A stretch of 24,223 nucleotides of DNA. Origin: Candidatus Aenigmatarchaeota archaeon. Lineage in GTDB: Archaea; Aenigmatarchaeota; Aenigmatarchaeia; CG10238-14. Positions 7,261-22,927 of this stretch are shown one piece after another. The translations under genes and the position numbers were made by a program. Under the pieces are notes generated by a model. That model had not been told where the DNA came from. It worked only from the letters and a program-made list of their open reading frames with translations, and did no database searches. The DNA lies in assembly GCA_017610225.1 (NCBI GenBank), contig JAFCCM010000032.1:1-24223 (forward strand), read 5' to 3'. Within the stretch, counting starts at the first letter, position 1. Every line of letters begins with the position of its first letter.

Positions 7261-7842
7261 ATGAGGAGCGAAGTTTATTTATATTCAGAAAAAGAAACAA
7301 TGACAGAACTGGGAAAAAATATAGGTCTTGTAGGTAAAGCTCTTCAAAATTTTAAAAAATATGCTTTACATGAAGTTAAATTTGAATTAGAAGTTAATAA
7401 AGATTCTGGAGAATATAATATAATTTCTGTTAATAACTTAAAACTTGAAAAACTAAAAAAAAGAAATTATATAGCTTATTTTGATGGAGCATGCAAACCA
7501 AATCCGGGAGAAAGAAAAACTGGTTGTTTAATAAAAGATTCTAAAGGAAACATTATTTTTAAAAATTCAAAAAATATGGGATTTGGAACAAATAATGAAT
7601 CTGAATATTTAGGTTTACTTGAAGTTATTAAAAAAATAGTAAATTTAAATATTCAAAATGTTAAGATAATGGGAGATAGTCAACTTGTTGTAAATCAAAT
7701 TTTAGGAGTATGGAAATGTGACTCTCCCACATTACGTGCTTTAAATCAGCAAGTTCATATATATTTAAGTAAAATTCCAAATTGGACTTTAAAATGGGTT
7801 AGAAGAGAAGAAAACCAAGAAGCAGATTTGTTATCAAATTGA
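7261..7842 (+). CDS. Type 1 ribonuclease H with N-terminal extension
   Basis: 193 residues. The catalytic domain occupies about residues 68-193: YFDGACKPNPG (D75), NNESEYLGL (E115), MGDSQLV (D139) and NQEADLL (D189) give the four acidic residues of RNase HI. Such enzymes cut the RNA strand of RNA-DNA hybrids, for example to remove Okazaki primers or R-loops during phage replication. The first 65 residues are an extension not belonging to the RNase H fold, with ELGKNIGLVGKALQNFKKYA probably helical. It may bind nucleic acid or a partner, but I do not recognise it. The ribosome binding site AGGAGG overlaps the end of the upstream gene. The RtcB gene follows after 17 bases. Function sure, role of the extension unknown. 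Confidence 0.92.
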   Translation: MRSEVYLYSEKETMTELGKNIGLVGKALQNFKKYALHEVKFELEVNKDSGEYNIISVNNLKLEKLKKRNYIAYFDGACKPNPGERKTGCLIKDSKGNIIFKNSKNMGFGTNNESEYLGLLEVIKKIVNLNIQNVKIMGDSQLVVNQILGVWKCDSPTLRALNQQVHIYLSKIPNWTLKWVRREENQEADLLSN

Positions 7843-7859
7843 AAAGGAAAAATTATATT

Positions 7860-9071
7860 ATGATAAAAATATTTGAAGAACACCAAAATGTATCTATTTA
7901 TTCATGGACAGAATCTATAGAAGAAATGGCATTAAAGCAAGCTATAGATTTAACAAAACTTCCTTTTATTTTTCATCATGTTGCTTTAATGCCAGATGTT
8001 CATCCAGGATACGGTATGCCAATTGGAGGAGTTATTGCTTGTGATAATGTTGTGATTCCTAACGCAGTCGGTGTAGATATTGGATGTGGAATGATTGCTG
8101 TTCAAACAGATCGTCATTCAGATATTTTAAATATACAAGAAATTAGAAAGTTATTTGATAATCTCGCAAAACTTATTCCTGTTGGAAAAGGATGTTTTAA
8201 AGAATTTCAAGATTGGAAAGGTTTTGAAAAATATGAATCTTGTTTTATGAAAGATTTAAAATTACTTGGTTGGTATACAGATCATATTTGGAATTTAGCA
8301 AAAAAGAGCATTGGTAGTTTAGGTTCAGGAAATCATTTTTTAGAATTACAAAAAGGGGATGATGGTTTTTTATGGCTTATGATTCATTCTGGTTCAAGAA
8401 ATTTGGGATATAAAATAGCAGAATATTATAATAAGATTGCTCTTGATTTAAATCATAAATTTTATTCTTCATTACCAAATAAAGATTTAGCTTTTCTTCC
8501 TGTTGATTCTCAATGGGGTCAAGATTATATAAGAGATATGAATTTTGCTTTAAGTTTTGCTTTTGAAAACCGTCAAATAATGATGAATAGATTTAAAGAA
8601 TGTTTAAATGATATTTTTCCATATATTCAATTTTCTCAAGAAATTAATATTCATCATAATTATGCTAATCTTGAAAATCATTATGGAAAAAATGTTTGGG
8701 TTCATAGAAAAGGTTCAACAAGTGCTAAAAATGGAGAACTTGGGATAATTCCAGGAAGTATGGGAACTCCTTCATATATTGTCAAAGGTTTAGGAAATAG
8801 AGATTCTTTTATGTCTTGTTCTCATGGGGCTGGAAGACCTATGAGTAGAACTGATGCAAGTAAAAAATTAACAAAAGAAGAATGTGATAAATCCATGAAA
8901 GGAATTATATGTGGAAGATGGAATAAAATTAAAAGAGGAAAATTAAAAGGAGAATATGATTTAAGTGAAGCACCTGGGGCTTATAAAAATATTAACGTTG
9001 TTATTTCTGAACAAAAAGATTTAGTTACACCTATTGTTAAATTAGAACCTATTGGAAGTTTAAAAGGATAA
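7860..9071 (+). CDS. rtcB: RNA-splicing ligase RtcB
   Basis: 403 residues from the ATG at 7860, which follows AAAAGGAAAAA. The in-frame TTG at 7839, overlapping the previous gene, lacks a ribosome binding site. RtcB joins RNA 2',3'-cyclic-phosphate or 3'-phosphate ends to 5'-OH ends using GTP and Mn2+. Signature residues are present in order: LMPDVHPGYGMPIGG (44-58), VDIGCGM with D73 and C76, GSGNHFLEL with H159, IHSGSRNLG with H177, NIHHNYA with H265/H266, RKGSTSAKNGE, and SCSHGAGRPMSR with H322, the expected guanylylated histidine. The length is at the short end for the family and nothing appears missing. It lies in an operon with RNase H. In phages RtcB is thought to repair tRNAs cut by host nucleases that leave cyclic phosphate ends, and that role is an inference here. 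Confidence 0.95.
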   Translation: MIKIFEEHQNVSIYSWTESIEEMALKQAIDLTKLPFIFHHVALMPDVHPGYGMPIGGVIACDNVVIPNAVGVDIGCGMIAVQTDRHSDILNIQEIRKLFDNLAKLIPVGKGCFKEFQDWKGFEKYESCFMKDLKLLGWYTDHIWNLAKKSIGSLGSGNHFLELQKGDDGFLWLMIHSGSRNLGYKIAEYYNKIALDLNHKFYSSLPNKDLAFLPVDSQWGQDYIRDMNFALSFAFENRQIMMNRFKECLNDIFPYIQFSQEINIHHNYANLENHYGKNVWVHRKGSTSAKNGELGIIPGSMGTPSYIVKGLGNRDSFMSCSHGAGRPMSRTDASKKLTKEECDKSMKGIICGRWNKIKRGKLKGEYDLSEAPGAYKNINVVISEQKDLVTPIVKLEPIGSLKG

Positions 9072-9834: not shown

Positions 9835-10626
9835 ATGAAATTAGAATTTTTGATTATTGATCCTCAGAATGATTTTTGTGATCCAAAAGGAAGTTTATTT
9901 GTTCCAGGTGCTGATAAAGACTCTGAAAGATTATCTTCTTTAATTACAAGATTGACTTCAAAAATTGACGATATTCATGTAACATTAGATACTCATCATT
10001 TTGTTGATATTGCTCATCCTATCTTTTGGGTAAACTCAGAAGGTAAACATCCAGATCCTTTTACAATTATTTCACAAGATGATATTTCTAATAGTTCATG
10101 GAGAACAACAAATCCTCAATTTCAAAAAAGAGCAAAAGAATATATAAATCAACTTGCTAATAATGGAAGATATCCTCTTTGTATTTGGCCGCCTCATTGT
10201 TTAATTGGTTCATGGGGTCATAATATCCATCCTTCATTATATAAAACTTTTTTAGAATGGGAAAAAAGTTTTGCTATGGTTGACTATGTGACAAAAGGAT
10301 CTAATTTTTGGACAGAACATTATTCAGCTGTTCAAGCAGATGTCCCTGATCCTCAAGATCCAGATACAATGTTAAATACAAGATTAATTGAAACTTTAGA
10401 AAAATCAGATATTATCTTATTAGCTGGACAAGCAAGAAGTCATTGTCTTGCTAACACAGTTAGAGATATTGCAAATAACTTTGGAGAAGATAATATTCAA
10501 AAAATGGTTCTTCTAAATGATGCTACTTCTGATGTTTCAGGTTTTGAAAATTTTGGAGAAGATTTTGTAAAAGATATGGTTAAGAGAGGAATGCAAATTT
10601 CAAATACTATTGATTTTTTAAAATAA
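9835..10626 (+). CDS. Nicotinamidase/isochorismatase-family cysteine hydrolase
   Basis: 263 residues, with AAAAAGGAGA before the ATG. The fold signature is complete: IDPQNDFCDPKGSLFVPGA with D9, DTHH with D52 and H54 plus H61 as probable metal ligands, WPPHCLIGSWG (118-128), VTKGSNFW with K154, and GQARSHCLANTV with C204. D9, K154 and C204 form the D-K-C catalytic triad of nicotinamidase (PncA-like), which converts nicotinamide to nicotinate for NAD salvage. The insert between residues 60 and 120 is longer than in short isochorismatase-like enzymes, as in eukaryote-type nicotinamidases. Catalysis by this family is well supported. Nicotinamide as the substrate is likely but not certain. Context includes an NAD-dependent DNA ligase 8 kb downstream. 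Confidence 0.85.
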   Translation: MKLEFLIIDPQNDFCDPKGSLFVPGADKDSERLSSLITRLTSKIDDIHVTLDTHHFVDIAHPIFWVNSEGKHPDPFTIISQDDISNSSWRTTNPQFQKRAKEYINQLANNGRYPLCIWPPHCLIGSWGHNIHPSLYKTFLEWEKSFAMVDYVTKGSNFWTEHYSAVQADVPDPQDPDTMLNTRLIETLEKSDIILLAGQARSHCLANTVRDIANNFGEDNIQKMVLLNDATSDVSGFENFGEDFVKDMVKRGMQISNTIDFLK

Positions 10627-10689: not shown

Positions 10690-11448
10690 ATGCCAAAATT
10701 AATGCCTACAAATGATACAGAAATTATTAATATTCCAGGTCCAGGAAATTTTCAGTTTTCAGCAATTCGACCTGAGAAACTTGAGTCAACAGAATATACT
10801 TTAGTTACAATAGTAGTTGATGTAACCGGAAGTGTATCAAATTTTGCTGATGATCTTTTAAAATGTGTTAAATCTATTATAGAAGCTTGCACGAAAAGTC
10901 CAAGATCTGAAAATCTTATGTTGAGATTTATTACATTTAATGAAAATGTTGAGGAGATTCATGGATTTAAACCTCTTATAGATATTAAACCTAATGATTA
11001 TAATCCTTTAAATCCGTTTGGAATGACTGCTTTATATGATGCATCTTTTTCAGGTATTACTGCAACTTTAATGTATGCTAAAAATTTAATTGATCAAGAT
11101 TTTGATGTTAATGGTTGTGTTTATATTATTACAGATGGAATAGATAATAAATCTAAAATAACCCCAAAACATATTCTTGAAAAAATTAACGATGCAGAAA
11201 GAAATGAAGAAATTGAGTCTTTAACAACTATTCTCATAGGATTAAATGATCCAAATTCTAGATGGTCGGGAGTCGTTACTAGTTCATTAGAATATTTTAA
11301 AAATGAAGCAGGATTATCTCAATTTGTTGATATTGGAGATGCTACTTCTGAAAAATTAGCGAAACTTGCAAATTTTGTTTCTCAAAGTATAAGTAGCCAA
11401 AGTCAATCATTAGGAACTGGTTCAGCAAGTCAATCATTAACATTTTAA
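10690..11448 (+). CDS. von Willebrand factor A (TerY-like) domain protein
   Basis: 252 residues, with AAAGGAGAA before the ATG. A vWA domain spans about residues 38-232. Its metal-ion-dependent adhesion site is intact: DVTGS (D44, T46, S48), GMTALYDA (T113) and ITDG (D149). The C-terminal tail is Ser/Gln-rich (SQSISSQSQS). No signal peptide or membrane anchor is seen, so it should be cytoplasmic, as in TerY-type vWA proteins rather than adhesins. In bacteria such TerY proteins occur with a PP2C phosphatase and a protein kinase (the TerY-P triad), and here both lie within 2.4 kb downstream. This suggests a scaffold or metal-dependent binding role in a phosphorylation module. Domain sure, partnership inferred. 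Confidence 0.85.
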   Translation: MPKLMPTNDTEIINIPGPGNFQFSAIRPEKLESTEYTLVTIVVDVTGSVSNFADDLLKCVKSIIEACTKSPRSENLMLRFITFNENVEEIHGFKPLIDIKPNDYNPLNPFGMTALYDASFSGITATLMYAKNLIDQDFDVNGCVYIITDGIDNKSKITPKHILEKINDAERNEEIESLTTILIGLNDPNSRWSGVVTSSLEYFKNEAGLSQFVDIGDATSEKLAKLANFVSQSISSQSQSLGTGSASQSLTF

Positions 11449-11454
11449 ACTTTA

Positions 11455-11523
11455 AAAAGGAGAAATTTAATATGAGGATCTTATTATTTTAAAATGACAA
11501 GATCCTCATATTAAATGACAAGA
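11455..11523 (+). promoter_or_regulatory. 17-bp perfect hairpin enclosing a ribosome binding site-led 6-codon mini-ORF
   Basis: TTTAATATGAGGATCTT (11466-11482) is perfectly complementary to AAGATCCTCATATTAAA (11499-11515) with a 16-base loop. Just before it lies AAAAAGGAGA, and inside it is ATGAGGATCTTATTATTTTAA (11472-11492), a 6-codon frame encoding MRILLF. AAATGACAAGA is repeated at 11492-11502 and 11513-11523. It could be a terminator, an RNase processing site or a translation-controlled leader for the 11532 gene. Confidence 0.55.
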
Positions 11524-11531
11524 GGGAATAT

Positions 11532-11801
11532 ATGATTCGAGAATTAGCAAAAACAATTTTATTAACTCAACAAATTCGAGAAGATAGTTATGATCATGAA
11601 ATAGAAAAACATAACAAAGGGAATGTATATTTTAATTTTGAAAAATGTTATAAAATTAATATATATTCTGCGGCTAAAAAAGCTTTACATGAATTAAATA
11701 TGAATAGTGAATTAATTGATATTATTTATCTATTATGTAAAAATAATTGGAATGATTCTAATGAATGGGCTGATAGAATTTTAAAACAAAAGGAGAAATA
11801 A
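11532..11801 (+). CDS. Uncharacterised protein, 89 residues
   Basis: The ATG at 11532 follows AGAGGGAATAT, a weaker ribosome binding site than its neighbours, directly after the strong hairpin. I recognise no family. The product is mixed helical, with a basic/acidic N-terminus (IRELAKTILLTQQIREDS) and a C-terminal ELIDIIYLLCKNNWNDSNE, and has no membrane segment. Its last codons (AAAGGAGAAA) form the ribosome binding site for the 376-residue gene, which starts 7 bases after its stop, so they are probably co-translated. Its location between the vWA and PP2C genes makes it a candidate accessory of that module. Confidence 0.65.
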   Translation: MIRELAKTILLTQQIREDSYDHEIEKHNKGNVYFNFEKCYKINIYSAAKKALHELNMNSELIDIIYLLCKNNWNDSNEWADRILKQKEK

Positions 11802-11807
11802 TTAAAA

Positions 11808-12938
11808 ATGACTGAAAAAAAACATGTAGCAAAAACGATTAGAGATTTAAAAATTCATCCATTAAATTTTTTAATCATGGATAAATCAGAAAATATTAAT
11901 TCTACTATTGAAACTGTTAAAAGTTTTTGGAATTATGATTTAATGTCAAGAAAGCCAGGACCGGCATATACAGAAGATGGTATATTTATAGGAACAAATT
12001 TAGATTTAGCTTGTTTCTTATATTCACTTCTTGGAAGAAATGCTGTTATTAATATTCCAGAATATAAAACATTTAGACAAACAAAATTTAAAGAAGGTCA
12101 AATGTTAACCTCAAAAGATAACCGACATGGGGTTTTACTTGGAGTTACATCAAATAAAAATAATTTTACTTTTTCTGTAAAAATTAAAGATATGAATATT
12201 ATGGCATCTGAAGATGTTGGGGATTATCGAAATTTTGCTCTTACTGATTTTAGTGGAAAATGGTATGATGGATGGAAAACAATTCAATTTCTTCCTTCTT
12301 CCAAAGAAAATAAATTTATAACTGAAAATAAATTATGGTCAGGTTCATCAATTATATTTAAAAATTTTGTTCATCCTAATCGGTGGACTTCTTTCTTTGG
12401 TCAATATTATTTTATTACTAAACTCTTAATACAAAGATTAGTTGATGAAAGAAAACATCTTAATTCAATTAAGAAAAAGATGATTGAAAAAGGAATTGAA
12501 TATCCCAAAAAATCTGGAATTAAATTTACACCAAAATCTTATATTAAAGAATCAGTCGATAAAGGAAAACAAATCAAAGTAGATTCTTTTCATGTTGAAA
12601 TTGATTTTCCAGAAAAAGAAAATTCTAAATTTATTGAATATACTTTTGATTCTAAAAATCTTCTCAAAGTAACTAAACTTTGGAGAAAATATGGAAAGGA
12701 TATATCTCAACTTCAATTTATGACTCGTGCAACTGAATTGGCTCATTATAATACTCCTAATAGATTTCCTCATTGGTTAAAAAATGTAAAATGGGAAAAT
12801 GATTATAAACTTAAAGGAAAAAGAATTAAATGGGAACGTCTTGTTCTTTTTCAACCTGAAGTTGGAAAACAGGCAATAGCAATTCGTAAAAGATCATTTG
12901 AAAAAGCTGAAAGAGTTTCAGAGAATTTTCAAGAATAA
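11808..12938 (+). CDS. Uncharacterised protein, 376 residues, between vWA and PP2C genes
   Basis: The ATG follows AAAGGAGAAATAATTAAAA. I do not recognise any domain. Residues 40-200 have mixed alpha/beta character with conserved-looking aromatic stretches (FSGKWYDGWKTIQFLPSS and FVHPNRWTSFFGQYYF). Residues 205-260 are Lys-rich and probably helical, and the C-terminal 90 residues (KVTKLWRKYGKDISQLQFMT and FPHWLKNVKWENDYKLKG) are basic and Trp-rich, compatible with nucleic-acid or virion contact. There is no signal peptide, membrane segment or clear catalytic triad. A 14-bp hairpin follows the gene. Position suggests it is co-transcribed with vWA and the 89-residue gene. It may be a substrate or partner of the kinase/phosphatase pair, but this is only context-based. 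Confidence 0.65.
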   Translation: MTEKKHVAKTIRDLKIHPLNFLIMDKSENINSTIETVKSFWNYDLMSRKPGPAYTEDGIFIGTNLDLACFLYSLLGRNAVINIPEYKTFRQTKFKEGQMLTSKDNRHGVLLGVTSNKNNFTFSVKIKDMNIMASEDVGDYRNFALTDFSGKWYDGWKTIQFLPSSKENKFITENKLWSGSSIIFKNFVHPNRWTSFFGQYYFITKLLIQRLVDERKHLNSIKKKMIEKGIEYPKKSGIKFTPKSYIKESVDKGKQIKVDSFHVEIDFPEKENSKFIEYTFDSKNLLKVTKLWRKYGKDISQLQFMTRATELAHYNTPNRFPHWLKNVKWENDYKLKGKRIKWERLVLFQPEVGKQAIAIRKRSFEKAERVSENFQE

Positions 12939-12949
12939 TTTTTTTAATT

Positions 12950-12989
12950 AATAGAGATAGAAAGAAAATATCTCTTTTCTATCTCTATT
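12950..12989 (+). terminator. 14-bp perfect hairpin, probable terminator
   Basis: AATAGAGATAGAAA (12950-12963) pairs perfectly with TTTCTATCTCTATT (12976-12989) around a 12-base loop, followed by T-poor sequence and the ribosome binding site of the PP2C gene. It probably ends transcripts of the 376-residue gene or partly separates it from the phosphatase-kinase pair. The lack of a T-run makes full termination uncertain, and it may instead be a processing hairpin. Confidence 0.6.
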
Positions 12990-13006
12990 TAAAAAGGAAA
13001 AAAATA

Positions 13007-13816
13007 ATGAATAAAATTATATCAGTTGATCATTTTTCAAAAATGGGATCTTCTCATAAAATTTGTGAAGACTATATCATATCAGAAAATAATTATATTC
13101 CAGTTCCATATGTTATTCTTTCTGATGGTTGTTCTTCATCTCAAAATACAGATATTGGTGCAAGGATATTAACTCACTTGACAAAACAATATCTATTATC
13201 ACAATCTTCTTTTTTTAATTTAAATTCTCAAGATATGAGTAATTGGATAATATATAATGCTGAAAATATTGTAAAAACAATGGGGTTAAATAAATCTTGT
13301 TTAGATGCTACTCTTATTATTTCTTATATTGTTAATGATGACGTTTATGTATATATGTATGGTGATGGTTTTTTAATAACAATTGATTTGAATAATGAAA
13401 TTCGTTTTTCTAAAATTTCATATAAAAATAGTGCTCCTTATTATCTGAGTTATCAAATTAATTCCTATCGAAATGAATTATATAAAAAAAGTAATCCTAA
13501 AAAAAGATTAACAAATAAATATACATGTTATACTTGGTTGCCATATGAAAATCCATTTTTAAAAAAATTAAAATGTGAAGATTTTAAAGGAATATTTATA
13601 GCTTCTGATGGGCTTGATTCTTTTATTAATAAAGATGGAGAAAAACAAAATATTGAAAAAATAATGAAAGAAATAACTTCATTTAAAAATACTAATGGTG
13701 AATTTATTAAAAGAAGAATGGGAAGTAAAAAGGGTGTTATAAATAATCTTAAAGAAAAAGAATTTACTCATTATGATGATATTTCAATTGGAGGATTCTT
13801 TTTCAGGGAGTATTAA
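13007..13816 (+). CDS. PP2C-family serine/threonine protein phosphatase
   Basis: 269 residues, preceded by AAAAAGGAAAAAA. PP2C motifs appear in order: CEDYI (E21, D22), ILSDGCSSS (D40, G41), LDAT (D100, T102), YGDG (119-121), IASDGLDSF (D201) and HYDDISIGG (D257, D258). These acidic residues bind the two Mn/Mg ions used to remove phosphate from Ser/Thr. No membrane or regulatory domain is fused. The insert at residues 135-190 (rich in Tyr, Lys, Asn) is longer than in minimal PP2C proteins. The kinase gene begins 3 bases after the stop codon, so the pair is probably translationally coupled and antagonistic. Catalytic family sure, substrates unknown. Confidence 0.88.
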   Translation: MNKIISVDHFSKMGSSHKICEDYIISENNYIPVPYVILSDGCSSSQNTDIGARILTHLTKQYLLSQSSFFNLNSQDMSNWIIYNAENIVKTMGLNKSCLDATLIISYIVNDDVYVYMYGDGFLITIDLNNEIRFSKISYKNSAPYYLSYQINSYRNELYKKSNPKKRLTNKYTCYTWLPYENPFLKKLKCEDFKGIFIASDGLDSFINKDGEKQNIEKIMKEITSFKNTNGEFIKRRMGSKKGVINNLKEKEFTHYDDISIGGFFFREY

Positions 13817-13819
13817 AGA

Positions 13820-15511
13820 ATGAAATATTTTATACGAGGAAAAGGTGAAGTCAATTTATCTCAAAATGATTTTGTTGCGAAAGGTGGGGAAGGAAGTATT
13901 TTTAAAAAAGGAAATATTTCATATAAAATTTATGAAGATTCTAAAAAAATGATTCCTGAAGCAAAAATAAAAGAACTACAAACTATTAAAAATCAAAATG
14001 TCATAAAACCAAAAGATATCATATTAAATAATAAAAATACAATTATAGGTTTTACAATGAAATGGATTGATGGTATTCCTCTTTGCAAATTATTTACAAA
14101 TGATTTTCGAAAAAGAAATGGTGTATTAGAAGATACTATTATAGAATTAGTTGAAAATATGAAATTGACTATTAATTCAATTCATAAATCAAAATGTATT
14201 ATTGTAGATGGAAATGAATTCAATTATTTATTTGATCAAAAGAAATTTAATCTTCCTTATTTTATTGATGTAAATAGTTATCAGACTCCATCATTTCCAG
14301 CTACAGCAATTATGCCATCTATTAAAGATTGGCATTCAAAAACTTTTTCTGAATTATCTGATTGGTTTTCTTTTGCTATTATAGCCTGTCAACTTTTTAT
14401 TGGTTTACATCCTTTTAAAGGAAGACATCCTAATTATAAAAAAAATGATTTTGAATCAAGAATGAAAGATAATGTTTCAATTTTTAATTCAAAAGTTCGA
14501 ATGCCTCCACCTACACGAAATTTTAATCTTATTCCATCTAAATATAAAGAATGGTTTATTAATTTATTTGAAAAAGGAATAAGACTTGAACCACCTGATC
14601 TTCCAGGATCAATTATTGTATCTCAAGTTCAAATAACATTAATCCAAAGTACAAACAATTTTAAAATATCTTTTTTAAAAGAATTTAAAAGCGAGATATT
14701 TCATCATATGATTATTTATGGAAATCGAGTAACAAAAATTAAAAATAAAATTTTTATTGGAAATAGAGATTTTAAAATTTCGCATGAAACAGAAGTTCTT
14801 TTTACTCCAAAATATATAACTCCAATTTTAGTAAAAAAAGATCAAAATAAAATAAAATTTAAATGTTTGGATAATAATAAAACTTTAATATCTCTTAATT
14901 TAAATTGTCAAGAAATATTAATTACTAATAATATTCTATATATTAGAAATGAAGGAGATCTTATAGAAACATCTTTTATTGAATCTTCTAATAAAATAAA
15001 TCTTATAGTTAAAAATATTTGGAAAATAATGCCTTACTCAAGCATTGTTTTTAGTAATGTTATTTATCAAAATGTTCTTGGAAAATCTTATTTAGTAATT
15101 CCTATTCCAAAAATTGATGGATTAAGTTCATGTATTATTAAAGAAATTCCTGAAATTGAAAAATTTAAAATCATCGAAGCAAAACATGATTCAAACGTTT
15201 GTATACTTATTGGTTTTAAAAGTGGGATTTATTATAGAATAATTTTAAAATTTGATGAGAAATATGAAAAATATTCTTATAGAATTATTGAAGATATCAC
15301 AACACCTGTAATTAATTTTATAACTTTAACAAATGGAATAGTTCTTTTAATGAATAATGATAAACTTGAAGTTTTTTCAAAAGATATTTCAAAACCTACT
15401 ATTAAAGTTTTTGATGATCCTAATATAAATTCAACAATGAAACTTTGTAAAGATGGAACTAAAGTTATGTTTTTTAAAGAAAATAAATTATATGAGATTA
15501 AAATGAGGTGA
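13820..15511 (+). CDS. Ser/Thr protein kinase with unrecognised beta-rich C-terminal domain
   Basis: 563 residues. Kinase domain about 1-280: Gly-rich loop AKGGEGSIF (20-28), catalytic lysine K36 in SYKIY, hinge TMKWIDGIPL (79-88), catalytic loop IVDGNEFN with D130 and N135 (HRD replaced by IVD), DFG replaced by DVN (D150), and DWFSFAIIACQLFIGLHPF (181-199). The essential Lys, Asp, Asn and Asp are all kept, so it is probably active despite altered loops. Residues about 285-563 are made of short hydrophobic strands separated by turns (e.g. KFKCLDNNKTLISLNLN, CQEILITNNILYIRNEG), suggestive of a beta-propeller-like sensor or substrate-binding domain. It directly follows the PP2C gene, and the vWA gene is 2.4 kb upstream. 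A member of a TerY-P-like module by content, but the substrate is unknown. Confidence 0.82.
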   Translation: MKYFIRGKGEVNLSQNDFVAKGGEGSIFKKGNISYKIYEDSKKMIPEAKIKELQTIKNQNVIKPKDIILNNKNTIIGFTMKWIDGIPLCKLFTNDFRKRNGVLEDTIIELVENMKLTINSIHKSKCIIVDGNEFNYLFDQKKFNLPYFIDVNSYQTPSFPATAIMPSIKDWHSKTFSELSDWFSFAIIACQLFIGLHPFKGRHPNYKKNDFESRMKDNVSIFNSKVRMPPPTRNFNLIPSKYKEWFINLFEKGIRLEPPDLPGSIIVSQVQITLIQSTNNFKISFLKEFKSEIFHHMIIYGNRVTKIKNKIFIGNRDFKISHETEVLFTPKYITPILVKKDQNKIKFKCLDNNKTLISLNLNCQEILITNNILYIRNEGDLIETSFIESSNKINLIVKNIWKIMPYSSIVFSNVIYQNVLGKSYLVIPIPKIDGLSSCIIKEIPEIEKFKIIEAKHDSNVCILIGFKSGIYYRIILKFDEKYEKYSYRIIEDITTPVINFITLTNGIVLLMNNDKLEVFSKDISKPTIKVFDDPNINSTMKLCKDGTKVMFFKENKLYEIKMR

Positions 15512-15868: not shown

Positions 15869-16975
15869 ATGAGTGAATTAATTGTAGAAGTTGTTAAAAT
15901 TAAAAATGTTGAAAAACACCCAAATGCAGATAGATTGGATTTGGTGACAGTGAAAGGTTGGCAATGTGTTGCTACTAAAGATTCTTTTAAAATTGGTGAT
16001 AAAGCTATATATTTACCAATTGATTCAGTATTATCTGGAGAAATTGAATCAAAATTATTTCCTCCTGAATCAAAAGTAAAATTATCTAAAAGTCGTATTA
16101 AAACTATTAAATTAAGAGGAGCTATTTCACAAGGAATGGTTGTATCTTTAAATACTCTTAATCTTTCAGAAAATATTAAAATTGGAACAAATGTTAAAGA
16201 TAAATTAGGAATAACTAAATATGAACCTCCTAAAAGAGGAACTTTACATGGTGGTGGGGTTGGTCATATTTCTAAAAAACAAATAAATCCAAATTTTAGA
16301 AAATACACAAATATAAATCATGTTAAAAATTACCCAGAAATTTTTAATAATGTTGTTGTAGTTATAACTGAAAAAATTCATGGTACTAATTTTCGAGTTG
16401 GGTATGTTAAACATGGTCATTTAAATTTATGGCAAAAAATTCTTAAATTATTTGGTCGTATTTCAGATTATGAATTTGTATTTGGAAGTCATAATGTTCA
16501 ATTGCAAAGTATTTTAAAAAGATTTAAAAAAACTTTTTATAAGAAAAATATATATTTAGAAACTGTTATAAAATATGATTTACAAAAAAAATTACAAAAA
16601 AACGAAGTTATTTATGCTGAAATATATGGATATGGAATTCAAAAAAATTATCATTATGGATGTAAAAAAAATGAATATAAAATGGTGATTGTTGATATAA
16701 TGATTAATGGAGAATATATAGATACAGAAAAAGCTATTCAGTTTTGTGAAGAAAGAAATCTTCCTTATGTTCCAGTTTTATATAAAGGAGTTTATAATCA
16801 AGAAATTATTGATAAATATGTTAAAGGAAAATCTGTATTATCTCCAAAACATCAACCAATTAGAGAAGGAATTGTTATAACTTCAGCACAAGAGCAAATG
16901 ACATATATGGGAAGAGCAATTTTAAAATATATTAATCCAAAATATTTATTAAAAGATCAATCAGAATGGCATTAA
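15869..16975 (+). CDS. Rnl5-type (DraRnl-like) RNA ligase with N-terminal OB module
   Basis: 368 residues. Residues 1-115 form an OB-like module (EVVKIKNVEKHPNADRLDLV, then GDKAIYLPIDS) like that of Deinococcus DraRnl (DRB0094). The ATP-dependent nucleotidyltransferase domain has motif I KIHGTN with nucleophile K169, then VFGSHN (204-209), AEIYGYG (250-256), motif IV EGIVI (333-337) and motif V LKYINPKYL with K353. Such enzymes adenylylate the 5'-phosphate and join it to a 3'-OH. DraRnl seals nicks in duplexes with an RNA 3'-OH end. It complements RtcB, which handles the opposite end chemistry. The length matches the family (about 340-370). Family well supported, biological target inferred. 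Confidence 0.88.
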   Translation: MSELIVEVVKIKNVEKHPNADRLDLVTVKGWQCVATKDSFKIGDKAIYLPIDSVLSGEIESKLFPPESKVKLSKSRIKTIKLRGAISQGMVVSLNTLNLSENIKIGTNVKDKLGITKYEPPKRGTLHGGGVGHISKKQINPNFRKYTNINHVKNYPEIFNNVVVVITEKIHGTNFRVGYVKHGHLNLWQKILKLFGRISDYEFVFGSHNVQLQSILKRFKKTFYKKNIYLETVIKYDLQKKLQKNEVIYAEIYGYGIQKNYHYGCKKNEYKMVIVDIMINGEYIDTEKAIQFCEERNLPYVPVLYKGVYNQEIIDKYVKGKSVLSPKHQPIREGIVITSAQEQMTYMGRAILKYINPKYLLKDQSEWH

Positions 16976-16980
16976 AATTA

Positions 16981-18144
16981 AAGGATTAAATCATGTGGAT
17001 AAATCCAAAAGAAATGTCGGAGATAATGTACAACTATTGTCTTGAAGAAGATAAAGAAGAATACTGGAGTTTAATTACTTATTCTAGATGGGTTTATTGG
17101 TATTGTAAAAATATTAAAGATCGACCAGAGATGAGAAAATTTATTACTAATTCGAGATGGGCTTATTATTATTGTCTGGATATAAAAGACCGACCTGAGA
17201 TAAGAAACTTTATTAATGATTCTTATGATGCTTATTATTATTGTAAAAATATTAAAGAACGACCTGAGATGAGAAAATTTATTACTAATTCTATATGGGC
17301 TTATTGGTATTGTAAAAATATTAAAGATCGACCAGAGATGAGAAAATTTATTACTGAATCAGATTATGCTTATTATTATTGTAAAAATATTAAAGATCGA
17401 CCTGAGATGAGAAAATTTATTACTAATTCTATATGGGCTTATTGTTATTGTCGAGATATTAAAGATCGACCTGAGATGAGAAACTTTATTACTGAATCAG
17501 ATTATGCTTATTATTATTGTCGAGATATTAAAGATCGACCAGAGATGAGAAAATTTATTAGTGATTCTTATGATGCTTATTATTATTGTAAAAATATTAA
17601 AGATCGTCCAGAAATTAGAAAATTTATAAAGGATTAAATCATGTGGATAAATCCAAAAGAAATGTCGGAGATAATGTACAACTGTTGTCTTGAAGAAGAT
17701 AAAGAAGAATACTGGAGTTTAATTACTGAATCTGAATGGGCTTATTGGTATTGTAAAAATATTAAAGATCGACTAGAAATAAGAAAGAATATTACTAAAT
17801 CTTATTATGCTTATTGGTATTGTAAAAATATTAAAGATCGACCTGAGATGAGAAACTTTATTACTGAATCAGATTATGCTTATTATTATTGTCGAGATAT
17901 TAAAGATCGTCCAGAAATTAGAAAACATATTACTAAATCAATAAATGCTTATTATTATTGTCGAGATATTAAAGATCGTCCAGAGATGAGAAAACATATT
18001 ACTGGATCAGATTATGCTTATATGTATTGTCGAGATATAAAAGACCGACCTGAGATGAGAAAATTTATTACTGAATCAGATTATGCTTATTTGTATTGTC
18101 GAGATATAAAAGACCGACCTGAGATGAGAAAATATATAAAGGAG
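16981..18144 (+). repeat. Tandem 69-bp coding repeats within a duplicated gene pair
   Basis: Fourteen 69-bp units in two blocks (8 from 17074 and 6 from 17722), each block preceded by the same roughly 100-base segment (16981-17080 and 17629-17728, offset 648 bases, one mismatch). The strings AAAGATCGACC and GATTATGCTTATTATTATTG recur. The frame is preserved throughout, so the repeats are under coding constraint and unit gain or loss would keep both proteins in frame. Confidence 0.85.
16993..17637 (+). CDS. 23-residue-repeat protein A (8 units)
   Basis: 214 residues: a 27-residue cap (WINPKEMSEIMYNYCLEED onward), eight gap-free 23-residue units, and IKD at the end. Unit pattern: I-T-x-S-x-x-A-Y-x-Y-C-(K/R)-(N/D)-I-K-D-R-P-E-(M/I)-R-(K/N)-F. 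In all 14 units of this and the next gene I1, S4, Y8, Y10, C11, I14, K15, R17, E19 and R21 are invariant, whereas positions 3, 5, 6 and 9 vary. The pattern suggests a helical solenoid whose core is fixed and whose exposed positions vary, so a protein-binding role is plausible. It has no membrane segment or enzyme motif. The ribosome binding site is AAAGGATTAAATC. I know no name for the family. Confidence 0.8.
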   Translation: MWINPKEMSEIMYNYCLEEDKEEYWSLITYSRWVYWYCKNIKDRPEMRKFITNSRWAYYYCLDIKDRPEIRNFINDSYDAYYYCKNIKERPEMRKFITNSIWAYWYCKNIKDRPEMRKFITESDYAYYYCKNIKDRPEMRKFITNSIWAYCYCRDIKDRPEMRNFITESDYAYYYCRDIKDRPEMRKFISDSYDAYYYCKNIKDRPEIRKFIKD

Positions 18145-21499: not shown

Positions 21500-22927
21500 T
21501 TATATTTTTTGTTGTTGAAATTTTAAACTTCCACAATCCCAAATTCTTGTATAACCTTCTTTTTGTCTTAACACCCATTCAGTAACATCTTTAGGTTCAT
21601 CTTTAGTTTTTCTTAAATTAAAACGATGAATTTTTAAAAAATCTTTTAAATACCAATAATTAATTTGAGTTTTTGAAATTAATTTAAAACCCAATTTGTA
21701 ATAAAGATTTCCTATTGACCATCTTCTATCTGCATAACTAAAGATTTCTTTCCATTCATAATTCTTCTTGAAATGAGATAAAAGTTTTCCAGCAATTCCA
21801 GGAATATGATAATTACTATTTGAACAAAATCTATTTAATTCCCAGATTCCTTCCTTTGATTTACTTCCTTTACTTATGTTTCCTTTTGAAAATGTCATAA
21901 CTGAAACTAATTCATTTTCAAAAAATGCTCCAAGCTTAATTTTAGAAGAATCTTTTCCTTGTATATGATAAGTTTCTAAAAATTCATTTTTAACTTTAGG
22001 TTCTATTTCTTTAATTATACATTTTCTTGCATGAATTCTTTTACTGTTATTAACTTTTAAAATTTGTTTAATTCTTGATTTAACTATTTCTTTTTTAAAC
22101 ATCCATTCATCTTCAAATATGTGAATTAATTGAATTCCTTGTTCTTCACATAACTTGGTTTTAAGAAGATGATAATTTTTATCTTTGATAAATTTTTCAG
22201 TATTATAATAAAAACTATCATATTCAAATCCAATTTTTAATTTAGGAATGTAAATATTAATTTCTAACCACCTATCGGTTTTTGGATTTTTTATAATAGA
22301 TCTACAATTATGTTCAATTTTAAAATTATCTGGAAGAATATTTTTAATAAAATCTAAAATATTTTGTTCTGGTTTACTAGTATCATTTAACCAAGGATGA
22401 CAAAGTTTACAAGGATGAGGCCCTTGATAAATATTAAAATAATCTCTAAAAATTATATTACCACAAGATAAACATTTAAGTTTAAGAACTTCACCATTAT
22501 TTTTAAATTCAGAAAGTAATTCTAGATTATATATTTCTTTAAGAATTTTTTTTATAAATGGTTTTTTATTTTTTAATCTTGTTTCTTTTAATTTTTGTTT
22601 CGATTTTTTACTTTTTATTTGATAACAACTACACTTAGTTTTTTCAATATTTGTTTTAATAATTTTATCGTTATGAAGACTGCATTTAAAACTACATTTA
22701 AGACTACAAAATTTTGCATAACCTAATTTAAGGTTGATGAACTGAGTTTCTTTTTTACAAGACTCAACTATTCCATGCATTAAACAGATACCTTCATCTT
22801 TTTTAATACGAAGAAATTTATCATAATATTCTTTTTGAGTTATAGAATGTTTTTTAAGATGATTAGAAATATTATTGAATTTTTTGTTACATATTTGACA
22901 AATAAATTTTTGATCAATTTTATCCAT
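21500..22927 (-). CDS. Multi-domain zinc finger/endonuclease protein with GNAT/Mom-like C-terminal domain
   Basis: 475 residues, with AAAGGAGATAATT before the ATG at 22927. Residues 10-27 form a C-x2-C/H-x3-H finger (C10, C13, H23, H27) and further Cys pairs follow (C74/C78, C152/C155, C173/C176). Residues 185-290 match a Vsr-like PD-(D/E)XK nuclease core: LEINIYIPKLKIGFEYDS, then K257, then GIQLIHIFEDEW. The related right-edge gene has D where this one has N224. Residues 300-450 (ARKCIIKEIEPKVKNEFLE, KLGAFFENELVSVMTF, WELNRFC, SYADRRWSIGNLYYKLGF) form the C-terminal domain I know from phage homing-type endonucleases, resembling GNAT/Mom-like folds. Probable mobile endonuclease; N224 may reduce cutting. 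Confidence 0.78.
   Translation of the reverse strand: MDKIDQKFICQICNKKFNNISNHLKKHSITQKEYYDKFLRIKKDEGICLMHGIVESCKKETQFINLKLGYAKFCSLKCSFKCSLHNDKIIKTNIEKTKCSCYQIKSKKSKQKLKETRLKNKKPFIKKILKEIYNLELLSEFKNNGEVLKLKCLSCGNIIFRDYFNIYQGPHPCKLCHPWLNDTSKPEQNILDFIKNILPDNFKIEHNCRSIIKNPKTDRWLEINIYIPKLKIGFEYDSFYYNTEKFIKDKNYHLLKTKLCEEQGIQLIHIFEDEWMFKKEIVKSRIKQILKVNNSKRIHARKCIIKEIEPKVKNEFLETYHIQGKDSSKIKLGAFFENELVSVMTFSKGNISKGSKSKEGIWELNRFCSNSNYHIPGIAGKLLSHFKKNYEWKEIFSYADRRWSIGNLYYKLGFKLISKTQINYWYLKDFLKIHRFNLRKTKDEPKDVTEWVLRQKEGYTRIWDCGSLKFQQQKI

What the first reader, a model, noticed from the sequence alone, without database searches (positions are those of the whole stretch)
10690..15511. TerY-P-like vWA, PP2C phosphatase and protein kinase module in a phage
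Seen: a vWA protein with intact MIDAS, a PP2C with all metal-binding acids and, 3 bases later, a kinase with K36, D130, N135 and D150. Known: vWA (TerY), PP2C and kinase form the TerY-P triad in bacterial tellurite/stress and defence-associated loci. Inferred: this phage carries its own triad, with two unknown genes (89 and 376 residues) inserted, perhaps to counter host signalling or to control virion assembly or takeover by reversible phosphorylation. I know of no described phage system of this exact composition.
Basis: partly seen in the sequence, partly recalled or inferred. Interest (0 to 1): 0.8.

Follow-up and report, generated by a model that had tools for sequence, protein, structure and literature searches.

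The report
Phage nicotinamidase with kinase-phosphatase signalling module
This virus of bacteria carries a protein-phosphorylation switch whose genes travel as one block with an enzyme that recycles the cell's vital cofactor NAD, which suggests, but does not yet prove, that some giant phages switch NAD production on and off by phosphorylation during infection.

Summary
In detail: vWA with intact MIDAS (10690-11448), PP2C (13007-13816), kinase (13820-15511). The interpretation needs changing. Of 75 kinase-centred viral loci, 72 hold all four genes in the held flanks, on one strand; two of the other three have the missing genes further off, one ends at a contig edge. The 89- and 376-residue genes are optional inserts. 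In many relatives, though not in the window or its nearest ones, genes for the rest of Preiss-Handler NAD+ salvage (PncB, NadD, NadE) lie close by: NAPRT-type within 10 kb in 15 of 29 records, NadE-type in 18 of 32 (expected 3.1 and 3.4). In seven of 53 kinase lineages they are interleaved, e.g. nic>vWA>pncB>nadE>PP2C>nadD>kinase. Contigs binned as bacteria show NrtR-like NAD regulators beside the block. Best reading: a TerY-P-like phosphoswitch tied to NAD+ salvage. It works like TerY-P but is not a canonical member. Substrate, trigger and activity are untested.

The parts
9835..10626 (+). Nicotinamidase-like cysteine hydrolase (263 aa), first gene of the four-gene module; triad D9/K154/C204, metal-site D52/H54/H61
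10690..11448 (+). vWA protein (252 aa), complete MIDAS, conserved Ser-rich C-terminal tail (S231, S233, S235, S238)
   Evidence: MIDAS 86 of 86, tail serines 82-85 of 86; homologous to TerY-P/YegL vWA by hhalign 97.4%
11532..11801 (+). 89-residue unknown gene, insert, not part of the core
   Evidence: no blastp relative at 1e-4 in L001-L008; weak PHROG 4776 hit E 0.0025
11808..12938 (+). 376-residue unknown gene, optional insert of a subgroup
   Evidence: cluster 13: window plus L009, L010, L011, L012, L016, i.e. 6 of 80 loci
13007..13816 (+). PP2C-type Ser/Thr phosphatase (269 aa)
   Evidence: PF13672 32.8 bits; metal acids conserved in 87 of 88
13820..15511 (+). Ser/Thr-type protein kinase (563 aa): kinase domain about 1-255, beta-rich tail about 273-562 (29 predicted strands, probably a beta-propeller)
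   Evidence: AF2 pLDDT 90, pTM 0.52; kinase fold; BFVD matches include a 7-bladed propeller lactonase; catalytic residues

Best explanation
A four-gene phage operon, nicotinamidase > vWA > PP2C > kinase, that gates NAD+ salvage by reversible phosphorylation. Shown here: the four genes form one conserved, co-oriented unit; the catalytic and metal residues are intact; in many relatives the unit is close to, and in some interleaved with, genes for the remaining Preiss-Handler steps (nicotinate phosphoribosyltransferase PncB, nicotinate-nucleotide adenylyltransferase NadD, NAD synthetase NadE); on contigs binned as bacteria it sits beside NrtR-like NAD regulators. Inferred: nicotinamide released by host NADase defences, or by phage and host NAD+-consuming enzymes, is deamidated by the nicotinamidase and rebuilt into NAD+. 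The kinase and PP2C set the phosphorylation state of the vWA adaptor (its conserved Ser tail is the first candidate site) and/or of the salvage enzymes, with the beta-rich kinase tail as docking or sensing domain, so that the costly pathway runs only when NAD+ is short. In the window phage the downstream enzymes are not in the 24 kb and must come from the rest of the genome or from the host.
For: Co-occurrence: 72 of 75 kinase-centred viral loci have all four genes in the held flanks (up to 8 kb each side), 64 in exactly this order. The three others: L044 has the nicotinamidase just beyond the held flank; L039 has nicotinamidase and vWA about 10 kb away on the same contig (L089); L028 starts at the contig end. 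By single-linkage clusters at 60% kinase identity: 50 of 53. In 58 of 63 lineages at 90% identity the vWA is the next core gene after the nicotinamidase, with at most 60 bases between open frames in 39 of those 58. NAD link: of 48 records searched, 30 have a NAPRTase match (28 over the cut-off) and 33 a NAD_synthase match. After dropping one duplicate record, NAPRT lies within 10 kb of the kinase in 15 of 29 records (expected 3.1) and NadE in 18 of 32 (expected 3.4); 0 of 20,000 simulations reached either. With the seven weak NAPRT matches left out: 11 of 22, expected 2.3, 0 of 20,000. Terminase as a comparison: 0 of 13 within 20 kb, expected 2.1. NAPRT or NadE is in 22 of 23 records of 200 kb or more. 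pncB, nadE or nadD lie between core genes in 7 of 53 lineages, e.g. L036 nic>vWA>pncB>nadE>PP2C>nadD>kin. Curated models: L036 PncB 403 bits (cut-off 269.6), L035 NadE 839 (cut-off 473). Contigs binned as cellular: 11 of 31 kinase loci hold all four genes; NrtR-like gene in 10 of 31 (three of these were seeds of the profile), 0-45 bases from the module in 8 of those 10 by open-frame bounds. Cultured Variovorax sp. SRS16 plasmid 2: NrtR-like/nic/vWA (L200), about 20 kb on PP2C-kinase-pncB (L196), then NADAR and NadE.
Against: No biochemical, expression or phosphorylation data. No PncB, NadD or NadE in the window by profile or Pfam. 41 of 75 viral loci show none of pncB/nadE/nadD in the held flanks (34 do). 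The window's nearer relatives L009-L014 are among those without, and the whole records of L009-L014 (59-248 kb) have neither a NAPRTase nor a NAD_synthase match; L010's 248-kb record is the one exception among the 23 large ones. These records may be fragments. The nicotinamidase scores far below the curated PncA cut-off, so other substrates of the superfamily cannot be excluded. Some nicotinamidase loci lack the triad nearby (L152, L161; L202), and some kinases occur without nicotinamidase (12 of 31 genome-contig loci kinase only, several on short contigs). The proximity test assumes uniform placement and treats related records as independent; terminase, a structural gene, is an imperfect control.
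Confidence: 0.53

Rival explanations
1. General host takeover: the kinase/phosphatase pair acts on host proteins, and the NAD genes only share an auxiliary-gene region of the phage genome.
For: Phage kinases with host targets are known (recalled); 41 of 75 viral loci have no pncB/nadE/nadD in the held flanks, and the window's nearer relatives have no NAPRTase or NAD_synthase match in their whole records; the kinase has a long tail suited to docking.
Against: All four genes, nicotinamidase included, in 72 of 75 kinase loci; interleaving in 7 of 53 lineages; the same link, with NrtR-like regulators, on contigs binned as bacteria.
Confidence: 0.22
2. A TerY-P-like defence cassette carried by the phage against competing phages, with nicotinamidase as effector or by-stander.
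For: Same gene order and homologous proteins as the vWA-PP2C-kinase triads of Sphingobium and Rhizobium plasmids (L197, L198) and E. coli yegL-pphC-yegI (L195): hhalign 97.4%, 97.3% and 99.4% for vWA, PP2C and kinase; TerY-P-like modules are reported as stand-alone anti-phage systems (PMC11090510, passages).
Against: No PADLOC TerY-P model is hit (weak test, no positive control); a pair of CxxC motifs is in 0 of 75 kinase tails; neighbours in relatives are NAD enzymes, not nucleases or ter genes.
Confidence: 0.13
3. vWA works as a chaperone for virion assembly or for RNA repair, under phosphorylation control; NAD link secondary.
For: MoxR-vWA chaperone pairs are proposed for jumbo phage assembly (PMC7824862, passage); RtcB, RNase H and RNA ligase genes are neighbours in the window.
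Against: No MoxR-type ATPase among the 20 window proteins scanned with Pfam; the RtcB cluster is in only 3 of 80 loci; the module is also on contigs binned as cellular.
Confidence: 0.05

Closest known systems
TerY-P triad (vWA, PP2C, kinase) and E. coli yegL-pphC-yegI
   Same: Homologous three proteins in the order vWA > PP2C > kinase (L195, L197, L198; in E. coli one gene on the other strand lies between PP2C and kinase).
   Different: Nicotinamidase as near-constant fourth gene; beta-rich kinase tail of about 290 residues without a pair of CxxC motifs; NAD-salvage neighbours in many relatives.
Phage NAD+ synthesis, NadV with NadM/NadR, and NARP1
   Same: Phage genes that rebuild NAD+, proposed or shown to counter NADase defence (PMC9503650 section 3.6 read; NARP1: abstracts in listing, and passages of PMC13232231).
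   Different: Here the deamidating Preiss-Handler route (nicotinamidase, PncB, NadD, NadE) with a kinase/phosphatase/vWA module. Main-text word finds: PMC9503650 has 0 for nicotinamidase, isochorismatase and PP2C and 1 for vWA, a predicted chaperone near ADP-ribose-processing genes; PMC7824862 has 0 for isochorismatase, PP2C and TerY and 4 for vWA.
Phage X1 NAD genes (PMC13384950, passages seen)
   Same: Lists pncB, nadM, nadD, nadE in one phage as auxiliary genes.
   Different: No 'kinase' in its main text; no linked signalling module in the passages seen.
KKP kinase-kinase-phosphatase prophage module (PMC11341870, abstract, outline and passages)
   Same: Phage-borne PP2C and kinase as one switch.
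   Different: KKP has two kinases and the main text has no vWA hit; here one kinase, a vWA and a nicotinamidase.
NrtR-regulated bacterial NAD operons (recalled)
   Same: NrtR-like gene beside the module on contigs binned as cellular.
   Different: The protein-phosphorylation genes; six such proteins score 161-206 bits against the NtrR equivalog cut-off of 400, so NrtR-like only.

Membership tests
TerY-P triad | TerY-like vWA with MIDAS | tested here: met
   MIDAS 86 of 86; hhalign 97.4% to a TerY-P/YegL set
TerY-P triad | PP2C-like phosphatase in the same operon | tested here: met
   PF13672; hhalign 97.3%; PP2C in 75 of 75 viral kinase loci
TerY-P triad | Kinase of the same family | tested here: met
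   hhalign 99.4%, E 3.7e-21 over the kinase domain
TerY-P triad | Kinase C-terminal zinc ribbon | tested here: not met
   two CxxC motifs in 0 of 75 tails, one in 6 of 75. Crude test: of the comparators Sphingobium has two CxxC, Rhizobium only one
TerY-P triad | Kinase C-terminal OB fold (defence variants) | tested here: inconclusive
   tail is all-beta with 29 strands, far larger than one OB fold, but it was not folded and searched alone (one search covers 1-271)
TerY-P triad | Match to PADLOC TerY-P models | tested here: inconclusive
   no TerY-P hit; E. coli YegI/PphC/YegL get none either, and no known TerY-P protein was run as positive control
TerY-P triad | Linkage to ter or restriction genes | tested here: not met
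   none among 20 window proteins scanned with Pfam (not all 34 ORFs); frequent neighbours in relatives are NAD genes
Nicotinamidase (PncA) | D-K-C triad and metal ligands | tested here: met
   D9 90, K154 92, C204 92, D52 92, H54 91, H61 87 of 92; roles assigned by recall of PncA enzymology
Nicotinamidase (PncA) | Fold nearest to nicotinamidases | tested here: met
Nicotinamidase (PncA) | NCBIfam PncA equivalog cut-off | tested here: not met
   35 bits against 174
Nicotinamidase (PncA) | Activity on nicotinamide | not testable with these tools
   needs an enzyme assay
KKP module | Two kinases and one PP2C | tested here: not met
   one kinase beside the PP2C in the window
Phage NAD+ synthesis by NadV | Nicotinamide phosphoribosyltransferase | tested here: inconclusive
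   none among the window proteins scanned; PF04095 may not by itself tell NadV from PncB; one viral representative, L036, was typed as PncB by NCBIfam

The most novel reading that the evidence does not exclude
Giant phages, and some bacteria and megaplasmids, own a dedicated eukaryote-like phosphorylation circuit (vWA sensor/adaptor, PP2C, propeller-tailed kinase) that measures NAD+ or nicotinamide status and switches a complete Preiss-Handler NAD+ pathway on during infection: the first phosphorylation-controlled NAD+ salvage operon in prokaryotes or their viruses.
Probability: 0.43. Interest if true: 0.88.

Novelty: new variant of a known kind. Interest (0 to 1): 0.72.

Why it matters
NAD+ depletion is an anti-phage weapon and phages are known to rebuild NAD+ (PMC9503650 section 3.6). 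I found no description of a phage NAD+ pathway with its own kinase, phosphatase and vWA in the searches, which cover open-licence PMC papers only. If the link is functional, it offers a function for a YegI/TerY-P-type kinase family whose role is, to my recall, open; joins two fields (TerY-P signalling and NAD+ counter-defence); and names a cultured carrier, since Variovorax sp. SRS16 has all four genes and pncB and nadE on one plasmid.

Tried and rejected
376- and 89-residue genes as core: rejected. Scattered, independent vWA, PP2C and kinase genes: rejected for this kinase family; distant vWA hits in Microbacterium and Rhodococcus phages were not examined for neighbours.

A first scan with the window kinase alone in viral contigs found nothing; an alignment was needed. 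An E. coli megablast with window 10690-15511 gave no match. tblastn in 50,697 phage records found the kinase in 4 records, three uncultured huge phages and one unverified faecal contig, 3 with a more distant query, and the nicotinamidase in the same 4, so I know of no cultured phage carrier. The cluster I first called nadM mixes NadM, Nudix and NrtR-like proteins by single linkage; interleaving and flank counts in the report use pncB/nadE/nadD only. The pncB, nadE, nadD and NrtR profiles were built from session proteins, so their seed loci match by construction. Seven of the 30 NAPRTase matches are weak (17-32 bits); the test was repeated without them. The NrtR hit in L179 is a long overlapping open frame and L168's is a 72-residue piece; both are in the 10 of 31. 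The propeller reading of the kinase tail rests on strand count and on BFVD matches (propeller lactonase, P22 gp10-like), which were not inspected for the aligned range; the PDB rows shown were kinases. Literature: no paper found with nicotinamidase plus vWA/PP2C/kinase in phages. Gao 2020, Anantharaman 2012 and Osterman 2024 were not read. The phage nature of the window rests on PHROG hits (RNA ligase, RtcB, NAD ligase, virion-like) and on relatives in phage records; no capsid, portal or terminase showed among the 20 window proteins scanned.
Full report

A conserved four-gene unit. Profiles built from the first loci were run over all open frames of the fetched loci. Of 75 kinase-centred viral loci, 72 hold nicotinamidase, vWA, PP2C and kinase in the held flanks, on the same strand, 64 in exactly that order. 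The three exceptions: L044's nicotinamidase lies just outside the held flank, L039's nicotinamidase and vWA lie about 10 kb away on the same contig (L089), and L028 begins at the contig end. The 75 include redundant contigs; with kinases collapsed at 60% identity, 50 of 53 lineages have all four. Starting from the nicotinamidase (best 80 of 161 relatives kept), 69 of 80 loci have all four, while L152 and L161 have nicotinamidase alone with full flanks. Between the core genes different phages carry different inserts, such as the 376-residue gene (6 of 80 loci) or a 592-residue gene in L006. The signalling proteins keep their active sites: kinase G22-G23 in 75 of 75, K36 74, E52 70, D130 75, N135 74, D150 75; MIDAS 86 of 86; PP2C acids 87 of 88. 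The vWA ends in a conserved serine-rich tail (S231, S233, S235 and S238 in 82-85 of 86) and usually a final Phe (69 of 86).

Link to NAD+ salvage. Clustering of neighbouring genes gave, after the four core genes, a nicotinate phosphoribosyltransferase group (24 of 80 loci), a NAD synthetase group (21 of 80) and a mixed NadM/Nudix group (18 of 80) as the most frequent families. NCBIfam places representatives above curated cut-offs for PncB (L036, 403 vs 269.6) and glutamine-dependent NadE (L035, 839 vs 473); NadD (L036) falls just short (105.6 vs 112.5). Whole-record searches over 48 records found NAPRTase in 30 (28 over the cut-off), NAD_synthase in 33 and the broad CTP_transf_like family in 29. 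After dropping G040, a near-duplicate of W02, NAPRT lies within 10 kb of the kinase in 15 of 29 records (expected 3.1) and NadE in 18 of 32 (expected 3.4), not reached in 20,000 simulations of uniform placement. Without the seven weak NAPRT matches it is 11 of 22 (expected 2.3). Terminase gave 0 of 13 within 20 kb (expected 2.1); as a structural gene it is an imperfect control. In 34 of 75 loci at least one of pncB, nadE, nadD is in the held flanks; in 7 of 53 lineages one or more lie between core module genes. The clearest are L035, L036 and L042: nic > vWA > pncB > nadE > PP2C > nadD > kinase. An order in which metabolic and signalling genes alternate is hard to explain unless they work together.

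Against it: the window has no such gene, and neither have the flanks or the whole records (59-248 kb) of its nearer relatives L009-L014. Either those lineages keep the other enzymes elsewhere, use the host's, or the link is not universal.

Outside phages. The single genome-contig scan gave 31 kinase loci; 11 hold all four genes and 12 the kinase only. Ten of 31 have an NrtR-like gene, within 0-45 bases of the module in 8 of those 10 (L168 and L179 are weak cases; L170, L173 and L181 were seeds of the profile). Six tested with NCBIfam score 161-206 bits against NtrR (cut-off 400). In L170 the order is kinase > NrtR-like > NudC (NAD diphosphatase, 262 bits, cut-off 158). L173, on a 511-kb Acidobacteriota contig, has NrtR-like > nic > vWA > PP2C > kinase among what by eye look like chromosomal genes. 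These are metagenome bins, so some may be phage contigs. A cultured case is Variovorax sp. SRS16 plasmid 2 (801 kb): NrtR-like, nic and vWA in L200, PP2C-kinase-pncB in L196 about 20 kb away, NADAR and NadE further on. The same kinase match is in strains PBL-E5 and PBL-H6.

How it most likely works. Nicotinamidase makes nicotinate from nicotinamide; PncB, NadD and NadE carry it to NAD+. The downstream steps cost ATP and PRPP (general knowledge), so gating is plausible. The kinase (fold supported for 1-271) and PP2C should set a phosphorylation state; the vWA, a metal-dependent binding domain with a serine tail, is the natural adaptor and substrate; the kinase's beta-rich tail (29 strands, probably a propeller) would dock partners or sense a ligand. 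All of this paragraph beyond the folds is inference.

Comparison with the known. The three signalling proteins are homologous to TerY-P and to E. coli YegL, PphC and YegI, in the same order. TerY-P as described in PMC11090510 (passages) has a zinc ribbon or OB fold at the kinase end and is tied to tellurite resistance or nucleic-acid restriction. Here no tail of 75 has two CxxC motifs (a crude test, since the Rhizobium comparator also has only one), and the neighbours differ. So it works like TerY-P but I do not file it as a member. The reviews of phage NAD systems (PMC9503650, section 3.6 and passages; PMC7824862, passages) describe NadV with NadM or NadR, not this route, in what I saw. PMC13384950 (passages) lists pncB, nadM, nadD and nadE in one phage without a linked kinase.

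Verdict. Observation confirmed; interpretation partly supported and extended. The conserved four-gene unit is well supported; its tie to NAD+ salvage genes is well supported for many relatives, not for the window itself; the regulatory mechanism is a hypothesis at about 0.53.

Noticed in passing
window 21500-22927 (-): 475-residue protein matching PHROG homing/HNH endonucleases (1e-85) and, in Pfam, Mom (1.1e-7) with a weak Ros/MucR-like zinc-finger N-terminus.
   Followed up: no
window 16993-17637 (+): 214-residue protein made of a short unit repeated many times, with no match over a Pfam cut-off.
   Followed up: no
window 7261-9071 and 15869-16975 (+): RNase H-like, RtcB and RNA ligase genes flank the module: an RNA-repair-like set.
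   Followed up: no
L202 6965-12853: Variovorax paradoxus SPNA7 1.19-Mb plasmid: NrtR-like, nicotinamidase, pncB, nadE and a nadM-group gene in a row, without vWA/PP2C/kinase in the 16.8 kb held.
   Followed up: partly
L201 7983-9555: Vibrio parahaemolyticus 0.88-Mb plasmid: the nicotinamidase relative is followed by an RNA ligase gene, without the triad in the stretch held.
   Followed up: no
L200 3519-9765: Variovorax SRS16 plasmid: macro domain, two NUDIX genes, nicotinamidase, vWA, deoxyribosyltransferase-domain gene and NAD kinase together, a dense NAD/ADP-ribose region.
   Followed up: partly
L164 and protein P0011: Among the closest relatives of the window kinase, two (78% and 68%) are on contigs binned as Lokiarchaeota (31 kb) and Thorarchaeota (255 kb); possibly misbinned virus contigs.
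   Followed up: no
L008 2849-4300 (-): Human-gut contig with the module in order nic, vWA, PP2C, truncated kinase; upstream a 483-residue protein with a second MIDAS-like stretch by eye.
   Followed up: no
L006 12114-13892 (-): 592-residue insert between vWA and PP2C, an endonuclease-like candidate by eye only.
   Followed up: no
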